The position numbers and the translations under genes were made by a program. The notes under the pieces are model-generated. The model saw only the letters and a program-made list of their open reading frames with translations. It ran no database searches and was not told the origin of the DNA. A stretch of 64,000 bases of DNA, taken from Simmondsia chinensis. Taxonomy: Eukaryota; Streptophyta; Magnoliopsida; Caryophyllales; Simmondsiaceae. Where the stretch lies: assembly GCA_018398585.1 (NCBI GenBank), contig JAGTTD010000025.1:17427578-17491577 (forward strand). The letters run 5' to 3'. Below, piece after piece: positions 48,943-54,394 of this stretch (positions within the stretch are counted from its first letter, which is position 1; every line of letters begins with the position of its first letter).

Positions 48943-48957
48943 CATTTACACTGCCAT
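48943..48957. repeat. Target-site duplication of 5S SINE copy 2, left
   Basis: CATTTACACTGCCAT matches CATTTTCACTGCCAT at 54380-54394 in 14 of 15 positions. Confidence 0.88.
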
Positions 48958-49082
48958 ACAACGACAACAACAATAGACCTAGTGCCTCAGGGGCTCCCGC
49001 CTAAGTGGGGTTGGAGGGGAGGTATACAGCCTTACCCCTTCAGGATGTAACCCTGCTGAGAGGCTGTTTCCAATGACCGGCA

Positions 49083-49380
49083 TGATACAAGTGATAATAT
49101 TGGCCTAGGAAGAGTCAATTTGCCCTTCGAAGATCAATTGGGAATGAACATAGAAATATGAGGGAGAAAGAGAAGAGATAGAGAGGGAGAAAGAATTGTT
49201 TTTGCTGTCATTCAATCATACCTCATTTCCAAGAGTTGACTCCTATATATGCTTGAACTAAGAGCTAACTACCTCAACTAACTTCTCAACAACTAAGTAC
49301 ATATTACAAAAATGCCACTAAGAATACATGTACACTTAGTAATCAAACAAAATGCTAATCTTTAAGTATCAACAGTATCA
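49083..49380 (-). repeat. Gypsy 2 LTR, 3' LTR of the minus-strand element
   Basis: It runs TGATACAAGTGATAATATTG to CAACAGTATCA and differs from its partner at only a few positions, so the insertion looks fairly young. Confidence 0.92.
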
Positions 49381-49410
49381 ACATCCTTCCCTTTAAGAAC
49401 ATCCTTGTCC

Positions 49411-52400
49411 TCAAGGATTAAAAGAAGGAAACTTGTTCAAGAGATCATACAACAATTCCCAAATAGCCTGCTCAGCCGACTGATGTTTCTATTTAACCAG
49501 AACTCGAGTTGTTGCACGATGACCCCTTCTGACTAGTTGCCTCTGCAGAATTGCTTCAGGCTCATGGATGACAAGCCATCTGCATTGTCTGGTAATGGAA
49601 TGATATGAGTAGGCAAGCCCTTTGTGGCGCTTGAGTTGTGATACATGTATAACATCATGTATCCTAGATGAAGTAGGCAAGAATAACCTATATGCAGCAT
49701 TGCCAATCCTCTCAATGATCTGAAATGGCCAAAAAAAAAAAAAAAAAAAAAACGAGGAGCCAACTTGTGATTAAGACGAACCACCACTAAAATCTGCTTA
49801 TAAGGGTACAATTTAAGGTAGAGCCAACCACCAACATTGAATAGACAATCAGATATGTGCCTATCAGCCGTTTGCTTCATACAGTTCTGAGCTCTCTATA
49901 GATGGACCTTGAGGAGCTTGATTTGATCTTCCCTTTGCAACAAGTTGTTATTAACAGCTTCTACCTCTACTTCTTTGGCCAAATATGGAATATGGAGAGG
50001 AGGAGCTTGCCTATAGAGGAGTTCATAGGGAGTGGTATTGGTGGATGAATGCCATGTGGTATTATATACCACCATTCCGCAAGGGGCCAGCCACTTAGCC
50101 CAGTAATTTGGGTTAGAACTACACATGCATCGCAAATAAGTTTTAAGTCCCCCATTTACCACCTCTATCTAACCATCAGTCTGAGGATGGTAAGCCATGG
50201 ATAACATAAGATCAACACCCTGAATCGAGAAGAGTGCTTGCTAGAAATCACTTTGAAAAATTGGATCTCTGTCACTGATAATTGATTGCAGCAGTCCATG
50301 AGCTTGTATACATTGTCCATGTATACTTGTGCTATGGTAAGAGTGGTATAAGGGTGGGAAAGTGCCATGAAATGAGCATACTTGCTAAACTTGTCCACTA
50401 CCACAAAGATAACTTCCTTGCCAAAGACTTTGGCAGTCCCTCTATGAAATCTATGGACACATTGGTCCAAATAGAATTAGGGATGGGCAGGGGCTATAGG
50501 AGACCCGGAGTGGCTATATTCTCATGTTTACATGACTGACAGACATTGCATTTTTGAACAAAATTAGCCACCGTCCGGTTCATTCCCTTCTAATAGAAGA
50601 TTGATCTAACCCTTTTTAGTGTAGCATCTTCCCCTGAGTGTCCTCCCACGAGTGAACTATGCAGCCAAGACAAGATTTTGTGTTGTAATGCAACATCTTG
50701 TCCCACCACCAATTTGCCTTTTCTACGTAATTGATCTTGCTACCCAGAGTATTTGGCTTGTGAAGCGGGATCTTGTTGCAGCTGCTGATTGATATGCTAT
50801 AGCTTCTCATCTTGTTTCCAAGATAGCTACAATAGAGCATATAGATTCGATTCCGCAGTAGAAAAAAGTAAACAAGTGACTTTACGGCTGGGAATACGAG
50901 ACAATGCATCTGCTGCTATGTTGTCTCTGCATTGTTTGTATTCAAGCACATAGCTGAAACCCATGAGCTTCGATAGCCACAGCAACTTGAAATGAGTGTG
51001 AACCTTCTGATCAAGTAGAAACCTGAGGCTCTCTTGATCAGTTCTGATTACAAATGTGTTGTTAATTAGGTATTGCTGCCAATGTTGCACTGCACTGACT
51101 ACTGACATCAATTCTCTTTCATAGGCTGATAGGAGTTGCTGCCTTGGGCTGAGGGCTTTATTGAGGTAAGCTAAGGGATGGCCTGCCTGCATCAGCACTG
51201 CTCCTAGGCCTGTCTTACTAGCATCAGTTTCTATAATGAAAGGCTTAGAAAAGTCTGGTAATGCAAGAACAGGAGCAACACATAAGGCATGTTTGAGCTG
51301 ATCAAATGCTTGTTGAGCTAACTCATGCCATGTCCACCCTTCCTTCTATAAGAGTTTAGTGAGAGGCTGTGCTAGTGATCCATAGCCTCTAATAAATATG
51401 CGGTAATAGTTTCCATAACCTCTAATAAATATGCGGTAATAGCTTGTTAAACCCAAAAATCCCCTTAGCTGCTTAACATTCACTGGAATAGGCCAAGTTT
51501 GTACTGCACTAATCTTGCTGGGATCTGTTGCAACTCCTTCAACTGAGATTACATGTCCTAAATAGGCTATCTGTGACACCGCAAAGGAGCATTTGCTTAA
51601 TTTAACATACAACCGATTTCTACACAACACTTCAAAGACAATTTGTAAACGGTGCACATGTTTAGTTAGGCTGCAGCTGTAAATCAAAATGTCATCAAAG
51701 AAAACAAACACAAATTTCCTCAAGTAAGGCTCAAAAATGCCATTCATAAGTGCTTGAAACGTAGAAGCAGTGTTTGTAAGACCAAACGACATGACTAAAA
51801 ACTCATAGTGGCCCATATTAGTCTTAAACGCAGTCTTTTCAATGGTAGCACCTTCCATCCTGATCTGGTGATAACCAAATCTAAGGTCCAACTTTGAGAA
51901 GTAGTGCACACCTCCTAGCTTATCAAAGAGTTCTTCTACTAATGCTATTAGAAATTTATCTTTGATTGTAGCCTTGTTAAGATCTCTATTGTCAATACAC
52001 ATCCTCCAACTTTCATCTTTTTTCCTTACCAACACCACAGGAGATGCATAGGGGCTGTTACTGCGCTATATATGTCTTTTGTCCAGTAATTCTTTTACCA
52101 TGTGCTCGATGATATCTTTCTGCAATGCCGAGTACCTGTATGATCTCTTATTAATAGCTGCGGTTCCCTCCAATACAATTTTATGATCAAAAAGGGGTCA
52201 AATGGGAGGTAAGTATTGTGGCTCCTAGAACACTGAGGCATACTGATCCAGTAGGCCTTGTATTGCAAATGGCACGGGCCTATTGTTTGAATTAACAGCT
52301 ACTGAATTCACTGAAGGCCATTCCTCTTGTGCAGCACTTACTGATTTGATTTGCAACATAGCAATATATGGAGCTTCAAGTATAACCTCGAACAGTGCCT

Positions 52401-53914
52401 TAGTTTAAATCAATCTGTAATTTCCAGCTTGAATTCCTTTCAGCACATGCGTTTTGCCCCTCATTGTGAACACCATCCTTAATTCCTTGAAATTACACTG
52501 TATGTCACCCAATGTAGATAACCACTCCACCCTTAGGACCATGTCACAACCCCCTAATGGAATTAACATGAAGTCAACAGTGAACATTGTACTCTGCAGT
52601 TTCCATGAGAGTGCTTTACATTAAGCCTTGCAACTCATTTGACTACCATCAGCTACTGCCACAGATAATGGGTTAATGTGACTAATTCTGCAACCCAATT
52701 TAATAGCCAACCTTTCATCAATGAAATTATGAGTTGATCCACTATCGATCAAAATATGAAGGGCCTTTCTTCCATAATATCATGTCACTCTCAATGTTTG
52801 ATAGTTTGGGGCTGCAAATAACGCGTGTAAAGAAATTTGGGTTGTTGATTCAATCATGACAGATTCATTTTTGAACCTTTCCTCTACATCCTCAAACTCC
52901 TCATTGCCTGCTTCTATAATGAAGGGCTACACTATCTTGGACTTACATCTATGGCCTTGCTCAAACCTTTCATCACAAAAGTAACAAAGGCCTTTAGCCC
53001 TTTTCTCTTGTAACTCTTGGCATGTCAATGTTCTTTGTGATTTATTCTTGCTTAACTCTTCTGAAGAAGTCATACCATTCTTATGTTGCATCTTTGATCT
53101 CATTCCCTCAGATAAGGTGTTGGTGGGGGTGGGTAATAAAGGTGTTTTGGAATAATGCAACTGCTTGGCCAAGGCTTAAACCTTAGCCTCAGAGAGTTTT
53201 GCAAAACAAGCAGCCTCTTGTAAGGTTTGAGGGTATCTAGCTCTTACATCCAGAGCAATGTCCTTCCTTAAGCACCTTAAAAAACAGCTAATCAATTGTG
53301 CTTCAGTTAAGTCCGACCTTACTGCTATAGCATCAAATTGTGTTAAGTAACCACCAATAGTATCTTGTTGTCGCAAATTCATGAGTTCAGATACGGCATC
53401 TTCATAAAGTTTGCCAAGTCTTGTTTTTAAAGCTAGCACATATTCATCCCAGGTCACCAGCTGATTTCTAGTTTTCACGAACATTTGATGCCATTGTAAT
53501 GCAACACTCTTCAGAAGGAAGTGATGCTATTTTAATCCTCATGTAATAAGGGGTGTTGTCTACTGAAAAGAACTGCTCACAAAGGTATAACCAACCATCT
53601 ATATCATCACCTACAAAGAGTGGAAATTCTACCTTGCTCAGTCGCGAAGAATATGGAAGAGATCCATGGTGCTGCTGCTAATGGTCATGCTGTCCAGGTG
53701 AATAATGCGAGGAATCAGCAGTGGCATGCACATTTCTATCAGCAGGTCGAGATTGCTGCAATGCCATGCCTACAATCATCTCACACAACTCCTGAATGGA
53801 GTTCTTAAAATTTGTAACAGATTGCTCCATGTTTTCATTTGTAGAACATATTTGAGTGGACAATGATTCTTTAATTTTTTGGATTTCAGCCACAGATCGA
53901 GTGATATCTGCCAT
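49411..53914 (-). pseudogene. Gypsy 2 gag-pol polyprotein, inactivated
   Basis: It starts MADITRSVAEIQK at 53914. Gag (53800-53176; TWDEYVLALKTRLGKLYED) has stops and a frameshift near 53500. The zinc knuckle is CYFCDERFEQGHRC (about 52950). The protease lies between 52760 and 52500 in pieces. Reverse transcriptase (52038-51346; VFFDDILIYS) contains a ~30-bp internal duplication (IFIRGYGNYYRIFIRGYGSL). RNase H is 51198-50827 and integrase 50740-49896. The C-terminal part has an A-run near 49733-49752, and the chromodomain-like end contains RRGHRATTRVLVK and a stop. There are many lesions despite similar LTRs. Confidence 0.9.
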
Positions 53915-53953
53915 TTTCTTGCTTAAATTCGAGGATCAAAGCTCTGATACCAA

Positions 53954-54252
53954 TGATAAAAGTGATAATATTGGCCTAGGAAGAGTCAATTTGCCCTTCA
54001 AAGATCAATTGAGAATGAACATAGAAATGTGAGGGAGAAAGAGAAGAGATAGAGAAGGAGAAAGAATTGTGTTTGTTGTCGATCAAAACATACCTCATTT
54101 CCAAGAGTTAACTCCTATATATGCTTGGACCAAGAGCTAACTACCTCAACTAACTTCTCAACAACTAAGTACATATTACAAAAATGCCACTAAGAATACA
54201 TGTACACTTAGTAATCAAACAACATGCTAATCTTGAAGTATCAACAGTATCA
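53954..54252 (-). repeat. Gypsy 2 LTR, 5' LTR of the minus-strand element
   Basis: It runs TGATAAAAGTGATAATATTG to CAACAGTATCA, next to the primer site CCAATGATA / TTGGTATCAGAGC on the minus strand. Confidence 0.92.
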
Positions 54253-54261
54253 ACCCAACCT

Positions 54262-54376
54262 TCTAGGGTTGGCAGCGCGAGAACTTCCATGAGGTCATCT
54301 ATTCTGGTACGTCTCTCCCCCAAGCACGCTTAACTTCGGATGGGATCCGGTGCATCAGTGCCTAGTAAATGAACCC
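54262..54376 (-). pseudogene. 5S rRNA-like head of SINE copy 2
   Basis: On the minus strand, TGCACCGGATCCCATCCGAA, GTTAAGCGTGCTTGG and ATGACCTCATGG match the 5S rRNA middle, A-box and C-box regions in order. The start GGGTTCATTTACTAGGCAC is diverged from the 5S 5' end. The C-box has more changes than in copy 1. Confidence 0.87.
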
Positions 54377-54379
54377 TAT

Positions 54380-54394
54380 CATTTTCACTGCCAT
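54380..54394. repeat. Target-site duplication of 5S SINE copy 2, right
   Basis: CATTTTCACTGCCAT is the partner of 48943-48957. Confidence 0.88.

What the first reader, a model, noticed from the sequence alone, without database searches (positions are those of the whole stretch)
48943..54394. A SINE with a 5S rRNA head, proven mobile as one unit by a 15-bp target duplication
On the minus strand a 5S rRNA-like sequence (54376-54262) leads into an Au-like SINE body (49082-48958). CATTTACACTGCCAT and CATTTTCACTGCCAT flank the outer ends (14 of 15 identical). 5S-derived SINEs (SINE3 class) are known in fish, and 5S sequence occurs in plant Cassandra LTR elements. A plant SINE with a 5S head and an Au-type body is not one I know. 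A young-looking gypsy element inside it gives a minimum relative age.
Basis: partly seen in the sequence, partly recalled or inferred. Interest (0 to 1): 0.92.

Follow-up and report, generated by a model that had tools for sequence, protein, structure and literature searches.

The report
Plant SINE with 5S rRNA head
A short jumping element that begins with a copy of the 5S ribosomal RNA gene and ends in a plant-SINE-like body is repeated across this (apparently plant) genome, with its own target-site duplication at many sites; it is likely transcribed from its 5S promoter and likely copied by the enzymes of a partner LINE, and such 5S-headed elements are known from animals and a fungus.

Summary
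The 5S-like head (from 54376, minus) and the Au-like body (to 48958) are enclosed by a 14/15 target-site duplication; the 5170-bp gypsy-type element between them came later. A second, uninterrupted copy lies at 20081-20340. In the window's own 831-Mb assembly the head gave 1729 first-look candidates; 40 were scored: this locus and 39 others. In 39 of 39 others a body match begins within 30 nt of the head. Choosing by the body instead, 36 of 39 other loci carry the head, 12 of them 5'-truncated at differing points. Duplications scoring 11 or more flank 26 of 39 head-selected copies (25 after dropping one self-match) against 6 of 300 mismatched pairings. Consensus: ~250 bp, 120-nt 5S head with A box, IE and C box, linker, body, (TTG)n tail, no internal TTTT. 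5S-headed SINEs (SINE3) are reported from vertebrates, insects and a fungus; eight open-access literature searches found none in plants. Pol III transcription and an RTE-type LINE partner are inferred. Host 5S genes and an exact copy number were not obtained because the genome search answered only twice.

The parts
54265..54376 (-). 5S rRNA-like head of copy 1 (5' end of the SINE, GGGT at 54376), with an internal deletion
   Evidence: sequence; RF00001 32.0 bits, below gathering 38; 39 other scored genome copies match head plus linker
54253..54264 (-). linker between 5S end and gypsy insertion point, copy 1
   Evidence: sequence; the consensus linker is ATAAGGTTGGGGG
49083..54252 (-). gypsy-type LTR retrotransposon inserted into copy 1 (LTRs 53954-54252 and 49083-49380); not part of the SINE
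   Evidence: LTRs 94.6% identical, K2P 0.052; no clean 5-bp duplication
48958..49082 (-). Au-like body and TTG-rich 3' end of copy 1
   Evidence: sequence; 5055 first-look candidates in the genome, 40 scored; the body follows the head in the other copies
54380..54394 (.). target-site duplication, 5' side of copy 1
   Evidence: 14 of 15 identical to 48943-48957
48943..48957 (.). target-site duplication, 3' side of copy 1
   Evidence: 14 of 15 identical to 54380-54394
20081..20340 (+). copy 2: 5S head and body without interruption (older; K2P 0.186 to consensus; C-run inside the body); no duplication found
   Evidence: RF00001 55.9 bits at 20081-20198; alignment; distance
24208..24320 (+). body copy without recognisable 5S head
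   Evidence: 79.6% identity to the body; no RF00001 match at E<=10
40024..40117 (+). 5'-truncated body copy between perfect 9-bp repeats TGCAGTAAC (40014-40022, 40134-40142)
   Evidence: 78.9% identity to the body; repeats

Best explanation
This is one copy of a SINE family, repeated across the genome, that has a 5S rRNA head and an Au-like body, and it is likely transcribed by RNA polymerase III from the 5S internal promoter and likely inserted by target-primed reverse transcription with the enzymes of a LINE, most likely of the RTE clade. Shown: the unit (5S head, linker, body, TTG-repeat tail), its presence at many separate places, a target-site duplication of its own at many of them, copies cut short at the 5' end at different points, and the gypsy insertion into this copy. 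Inferred: Pol III transcription (promoter boxes kept, no TTTT in the consensus), LINE-driven insertion (duplications plus 5' truncation), and the RTE partner (the tail shared with published plant RTE LINEs and with the tobacco TS SINE).
For: Head search: 1729 first-look candidates, 40 scored, 39 outside the window; 39 of 39 with a body match beginning within 30 nt of the head. Body search, blind to the head: 5055 candidates, 40 scored; 36 of 39 outside the window carry the head, 24 from head position 20 or earlier, 12 from positions 24-89. Duplication score 11 or more: 26 of 39 against 6 of 300, and 18 of 39 against 34 of 1482. Promoter boxes in the 39 head-selected copies: A-box stretch exact or one off in 38, IE stretch in 30, C-box stretch within three changes in 30. 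Consensus without TTTT; head folded alone gives a 5S-like shape. RF00001 above gathering in 20 of 20 loci given, of the 39; no tRNA in the 39 loci. Two or more TTG in a row in 35 of 39; plant RTE LINEs end in (TTG)n or (TTGATG)n and TS pairs with RTE-1_STu (PMC3747384 Tables 1-3).
Against: Only the best-scoring 40 of 1729 and 40 of 5055 candidates were examined, so the bulk of the family was not seen. 13 of 39 and 21 of 39 copies did not reach the duplication threshold. 3 of 39 body-selected copies have no head. 7 of 39 copies hold TTTT in their first 235 nt. The gypsy in copy 1 has no clean 5-bp duplication. No transcript was examined, no partner LINE searched for, and the host's own 5S genes were not obtained.
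Confidence: 0.87

Rival explanations
1. The 5S part is a piece of a Cassandra-type LTR (an LTR element with 5S sequence in its LTRs) and the Au-like body merely lies beside it.
For: Cassandra is a known plant retroelement with 5S sequence (PMC10886601 and PMC10853983, passages).
Against: The body follows the head in 39 of 39 other head hits, and body-selected copies carry the head in 36 of 39. The duplications abut the 5S start and are 12-22 bp long in copies scoring 11 or more, not the short ones of LTR elements (recalled: about 5 bp).
Confidence: 0.02
2. Independent 5S pseudogenes or dispersed 5S gene units landed beside Au-like fragments by chance, or an ectopic exchange made this one chimera.
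For: Copy 1 is interrupted and its gypsy lacks a clean duplication, as an exchange between loci might leave.
Against: The same junction, linker and altered 5S start recur: GGGTTCATTTAC exact or one off in 37 of 39, linker exact or one off in 34 of 39. Copy 2 is uninterrupted. Many loci have duplications of their own.
Confidence: 0.01
3. It is the same SINE, but the partner is an L1-type LINE rather than an RTE-type one.
For: L1 is by far the larger plant LINE clade in the table read (233 families against 7 RTE; PMC3747384 Table 3). LINE-like reverse-transcriptase frames, which I take to be L1-type, lie in this window at about 57078-59800. Ragged 5' ends are common in L1 insertion (recalled).
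Against: In that table flowering-plant L1 LINEs end in (A)n (224 of 233) or no repeat (9 of 233), while 7 of 7 RTE families end in (TTG)n or (TTGATG)n; this SINE ends in TTG repeats.
Confidence: 0.2

Closest known systems
SINE3, the 5S rRNA-headed SINEs of animals (e.g. zebrafish SINE3, AmnSINE1, springhare Ped-1, HaSE3, PxSE4/PxSE5)
   Same: 5S head with A box, IE and C box; body; 3' tail shared with LINEs in several families; target-site duplications. In moth and nemertean comparisons too, the part upstream of the promoter boxes has diverged most (PMC10886601, passages).
   Different: Found in an apparently plant genome, on an Au-like plant body with a TTG tail. The papers seen place SINE3 in vertebrates and some insects (PMC7245038, passages).
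Au SINE and Au-like SINEs of seed plants
   Same: Body resembles Au (GGAAACAGCCTCT... GGTAAGGCTGCGTACA...), by a motif recalled from memory, not from a call.
   Different: Head is 5S, not tRNA (no tRNA in 39 loci); tail (TTG)n, where a published table gives (T)2-5 for Au.
TS SINE of tobacco
   Same: (TTG)n tail, for which an RTE-clade LINE is the listed partner (PMC3747384 Tables 1-2).
   Different: TS has a tRNA head. Sequence of TS was not compared here.
Cassandra
   Same: A plant retroelement carrying a 5S Pol III promoter (PMC10853983, PMC10886601, passages).
   Different: Cassandra is an LTR element with 5S in its LTRs; this is a SINE with long duplications starting at the 5S +1. Cassandra is said to date back some 250 million years; this family's scored copies are young (median K2P to consensus 0.067).
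5S rRNA-related SINEs of Aspergillus fumigatus
   Same: 5S-related short repeats outside animals (PMC5063351; search listing and start of abstract only).
   Different: Fungal; structure not compared here.

Membership tests
SINE (non-autonomous non-LTR retrotransposon) | short, dispersed, uniform unit in many copies | tested here: met
   about 250-bp consensus from 39 copies; 39 of 39 head-selected and 36 of 39 body-selected copies show head and body together; only the 40 best of each search were scored
SINE (non-autonomous non-LTR retrotransposon) | target-site duplications of its own at separate copies | tested here: met
   26 of 39 (25 after dropping a self-match) against 6 of 300; 18 of 39 against 34 of 1482
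SINE (non-autonomous non-LTR retrotransposon) | Pol III transcription | not testable with these tools
   promoter boxes kept and no TTTT in the consensus, but no transcript data
SINE (non-autonomous non-LTR retrotransposon) | 3' end recognised by a partner LINE | not tested
   tail type fits plant RTE LINEs; no LINE was searched for
SINE3 | 5S rRNA-derived head at the 5' end | tested here: met
   RF00001 above gathering in 20 of 20 loci given, of 39; full-length match to the model; near identity to a recalled plant 5S from about nt 17 on
SINE3 | A box, IE and C box of the 5S promoter | tested here: met
   A-box stretch exact or one off in 38 of 39, IE in 30 of 39, C-box within three changes in 30 of 39
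Au SINE | tRNA-derived head | tested here: not met
   no tRNA found in 39 loci; 5S head instead
Au SINE | short T tail, (T)2-5 | tested here: not met
   two or more TTG in a row in 35 of 39; (T)2-5 from PMC3747384 Table 2
Au SINE | Au body sequence | tested here: inconclusive
   resemblance to a recalled Au sequence only; no Au sequence was fetched or aligned
Cassandra | 5S sequence inside two LTRs | tested here: not met
   duplications abut the 5S start and the element runs on into linker and body

The most novel reading that the evidence does not exclude
This is the first plant SINE3: a 5S-headed SINE whose RNA keeps the inner 5S fold and may use it, beyond the promoter, to ride the host's 5S-binding export and ribosome proteins to a LINE being translated, as Alu uses its SRP domain. 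It would also show that plants can make the kind of SINE from which Cassandra's 5S has been supposed to come.
Probability: 0.25. Interest if true: 0.82.

Novelty: new variant of a known kind. Interest (0 to 1): 0.7.

Why it matters
In the papers seen, 5S-headed SINEs are placed in vertebrates, insects and a fungus. A plant family would extend the class to another kingdom and, sitting on a plant-type body, would point to an independent birth. It bears on a printed speculation that Cassandra's 5S came from a SINE3 (PMC10886601): that idea needs SINE3-like elements in plants, and this is one, though its scored copies are far younger than Cassandra's stated age. It also points to a likely blind spot: SINE-Finder looks for tRNA-type A and B boxes, and AnnoSINE drops candidates nearly identical to known RNAs (PMC8825457, passages), so families like this could be overlooked in other plants.

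Tried and rejected
Rejected: (1) a duplication for copy 2 at TATGTATT (20046, 20380): the repeat in which copy 2 lies, shared with 25695-26500, runs on past that point to about 20074. No duplication for copy 2 was found. (2) A hidden 5S head on the body fragment at 24208: no RF00001 match at E<=10. (3) A clean 5-bp duplication of the gypsy: none. (4) L024's apparent duplication: it is the body motif of another SINE copy lying just upstream. (5) Reading selection into the lower divergence of the 5S part (4.4% against 9.8% in linker and body): that set was chosen by head similarity.

Led nowhere: two pattern scans of viral contigs found nothing. A scan of bacterial and archaeal contigs gave three short matches in bacterial records, taken as chance and not followed. 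A protein search with one kinase-like frame gave no hit; the species was not identified. Papers not held. Searches failed because a term was too short.

Not obtained: the host's own 5S genes (RF00001) and a genome-wide count of the head-body junction; the genome search answered only.
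Full report
Observation. Read on the minus strand, the unit runs from a 5S-like start at 54376 through a linker, is broken by a gypsy-type element (49083-54252), and resumes as an Au-like body down to 48958. It is enclosed by ATGGCAGTG(A/T)AAATG on both sides, 14 of 15 identical. Of 2992 random pairs of 41-bp stretches from the window, one scored as high. The 5S match of this copy is weak: 32.0 bits against a gathering score of 38. A second copy at 20081-20340 on the plus strand is uninterrupted and its 5S part scores 55.9 bits. 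Two body-only fragments lie at 24208 and 40024; the second sits between perfect TGCAGTAAC repeats.

Genome test. The window lies in an assembly of 831,394,711 bases in 35 contigs. The head of copy 1 gave 1729 first-look candidates; 40 were scored, and 40 matched (E 7.6e-29 or better), the 39 outside the window at 82-84% identity. I fetched those 39. In 39 of 39 a body match begins within 30 nt of the head's end; in four (L017, L027, L031, L050) only part of the body matches. To avoid choosing by the head I searched with the body: 5055 candidates, 40 scored. Of the 39 outside the window (38 fetched, one already held as L032), 36 carry the 5S head: 24 from head position 20 or earlier, 12 from positions 24 to 89; L065, L078 and L095 have none. 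Ragged 5' ends are what incomplete reverse transcription gives (established knowledge of LINE-type insertion). Both sets are the best scorers of much longer candidate lists, so they say little about the older bulk of the family.

Duplications. A fixed search beside the head start and beyond the body gave scores of 11 or more in 26 of 39 head-selected copies, against 6 of 300 pairings of one copy's left flank with another's right flank. I set aside L024, whose match is the body motif of another SINE copy just upstream, leaving 25. L029/L030 and L040/L041 are segmental duplicates (99.3% and 99.0% over about 1.13 kb), leaving 23 of 37 loci. In the body-selected set the figures are 18 of 39 against 34 of 1482 pairings. 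An earlier run on 20 of those 39 gave 10 of 20 against 0 of 380. 13 of 39 and 21 of 39 did not reach the threshold. The duplicated sequences differ from locus to locus, apart from the segmental duplicates.

Anatomy. The 39-copy consensus starts AGGGTTCATTTAC and runs through a 120-nt 5S sequence, a short linker (ATAAGGTTGGGGG), the body and a TTG-repeat tail. Against a plant 5S sequence that I recalled, not fetched, the head differs by two substitutions between about nt 17 and nt 112; the first 16 nt and the last few differ more. In the 39 head-selected copies the A-box stretch is exact or one off in 38, the IE stretch in 30, the C-box stretch within three changes in 30, the altered start GGGTTCATTTAC exact or one off in 37, and the linker exact or one off in 34. 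Rfam finds 5S above gathering in 20 of 20 loci given, which I picked from the 39; ARAGORN finds no tRNA in the 39. The consensus has no TTTT; 7 of 39 copies have one in their first 235 nt. Folded alone, the head gives a 5S-like three-way shape closed by GGGTT/AACCC. With the linker included the inner helices stay, but the 3' strand of that closing stem pairs with the linker instead (CCAACC/GGTTGG), so the outer 5S stem is not secure.

Age. Median K2P distance to the consensus is 0.067 over the 39 (range 0.03-0.194); copy 1 is at 0.126 and copy 2 at 0.186. The gypsy LTRs differ by K2P 0.052, about 0.026 per LTR, so the gypsy is younger than the copy that it sits in. Its flanking 5-mers are TGGGT and TGCCG where the consensus has TGGGG once; the site is 5 nt longer than in copy 2 and in the consensus (by eye). 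That fits a 5-bp duplication changed later, but it is not a clean one. The SINE claim does not hang on it: it rests on the outer duplication, on copy 2 and on the genome copies.

Mechanism. Shown: one unit, many sites, duplications of its own, 5' truncation, TTG tail. Inferred: Pol III transcription from the 5S internal promoter, reading through because no T run stops it; reverse transcription primed at the target by LINE enzymes. In the tables that I read, 7 of 7 flowering-plant RTE families end in (TTG)n or (TTGATG)n, 224 of 233 L1 families in (A)n and 9 in no repeat, and the tobacco TS SINE with (TTG)n is paired with an RTE LINE (PMC3747384 section 21, read in full). I therefore predict an RTE partner; it was not searched for.

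What is known. [quoted passage not shown] PMC8010984, passages), and 5S-related SINEs are reported in Aspergillus (PMC5063351, search listing and start of abstract). A 2024 Cassandra paper cites gain of genic promoters by non-autonomous retrotransposons 'e.g. for SINEs in animals' (PMC10853983, passages). The three land-plant rows of Ohshima's Table 1 (TS, ZmSINE2, ZmSINE3) have tRNA promoters. Eight full-text searches showed me no plant 5S-headed SINE in their listings. They cover open-access papers only, and key plant SINE papers are not held, so priority is not proven. The host is taken to be a flowering plant from its 5S type, Au-like body and retroelements; no call named the species.

Verdict. 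It is not filed as Au (head and tail tested, not met) nor as Cassandra. Open: host 5S comparison, copy number, partner LINE, transcription.

Noticed in passing
27518-35386: Tandem block: 27518-32905 matches 30017-35386 at 91.5%, offset about 2.5 kb, carrying repeated gag-like frames.
   Followed up: no
8242-14267: LTR element with gypsy-type frames and repeats 8242-8943 and 13616-14267, 88.7% identical.
   Followed up: no
19207-20074 and 25695-26500: Two copies of a repeat (90.6% over 748 bp, then 95.6% over 45 bp) of unknown kind; copy 2 of the SINE lies at the end of the first.
   Followed up: partly
1-799: Tandem repeat with a period of about 216 bp (1-582 matches 217-799 at 93.8%); pieces recur at 7087-7273.
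   Followed up: no
57078-59800: LINE-like endonuclease and reverse-transcriptase frames, which I take to be L1-type, apparently cut off before a 3' end.
   Followed up: no
63522-63696: Match to MIR2606 (64.5 bits, far below its gathering score of 139.7; E 9e-08).
   Followed up: no
40601-41162 and 45696-46269: Direct repeats 93.2% identical on either side of copia-type frames at 41114-44940, probably LTRs.
   Followed up: no
L021, L024: A SINE copy lies directly behind the body end of another copy in the same orientation, so SINE tails may serve as landing sites.
   Followed up: partly
L029/L030 and L040/L041: Two pairs of loci on contig C34, near its opposite ends and in opposite order, are 99% identical over 1.1 kb: a large duplication or an assembly artefact.
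   Followed up: partly
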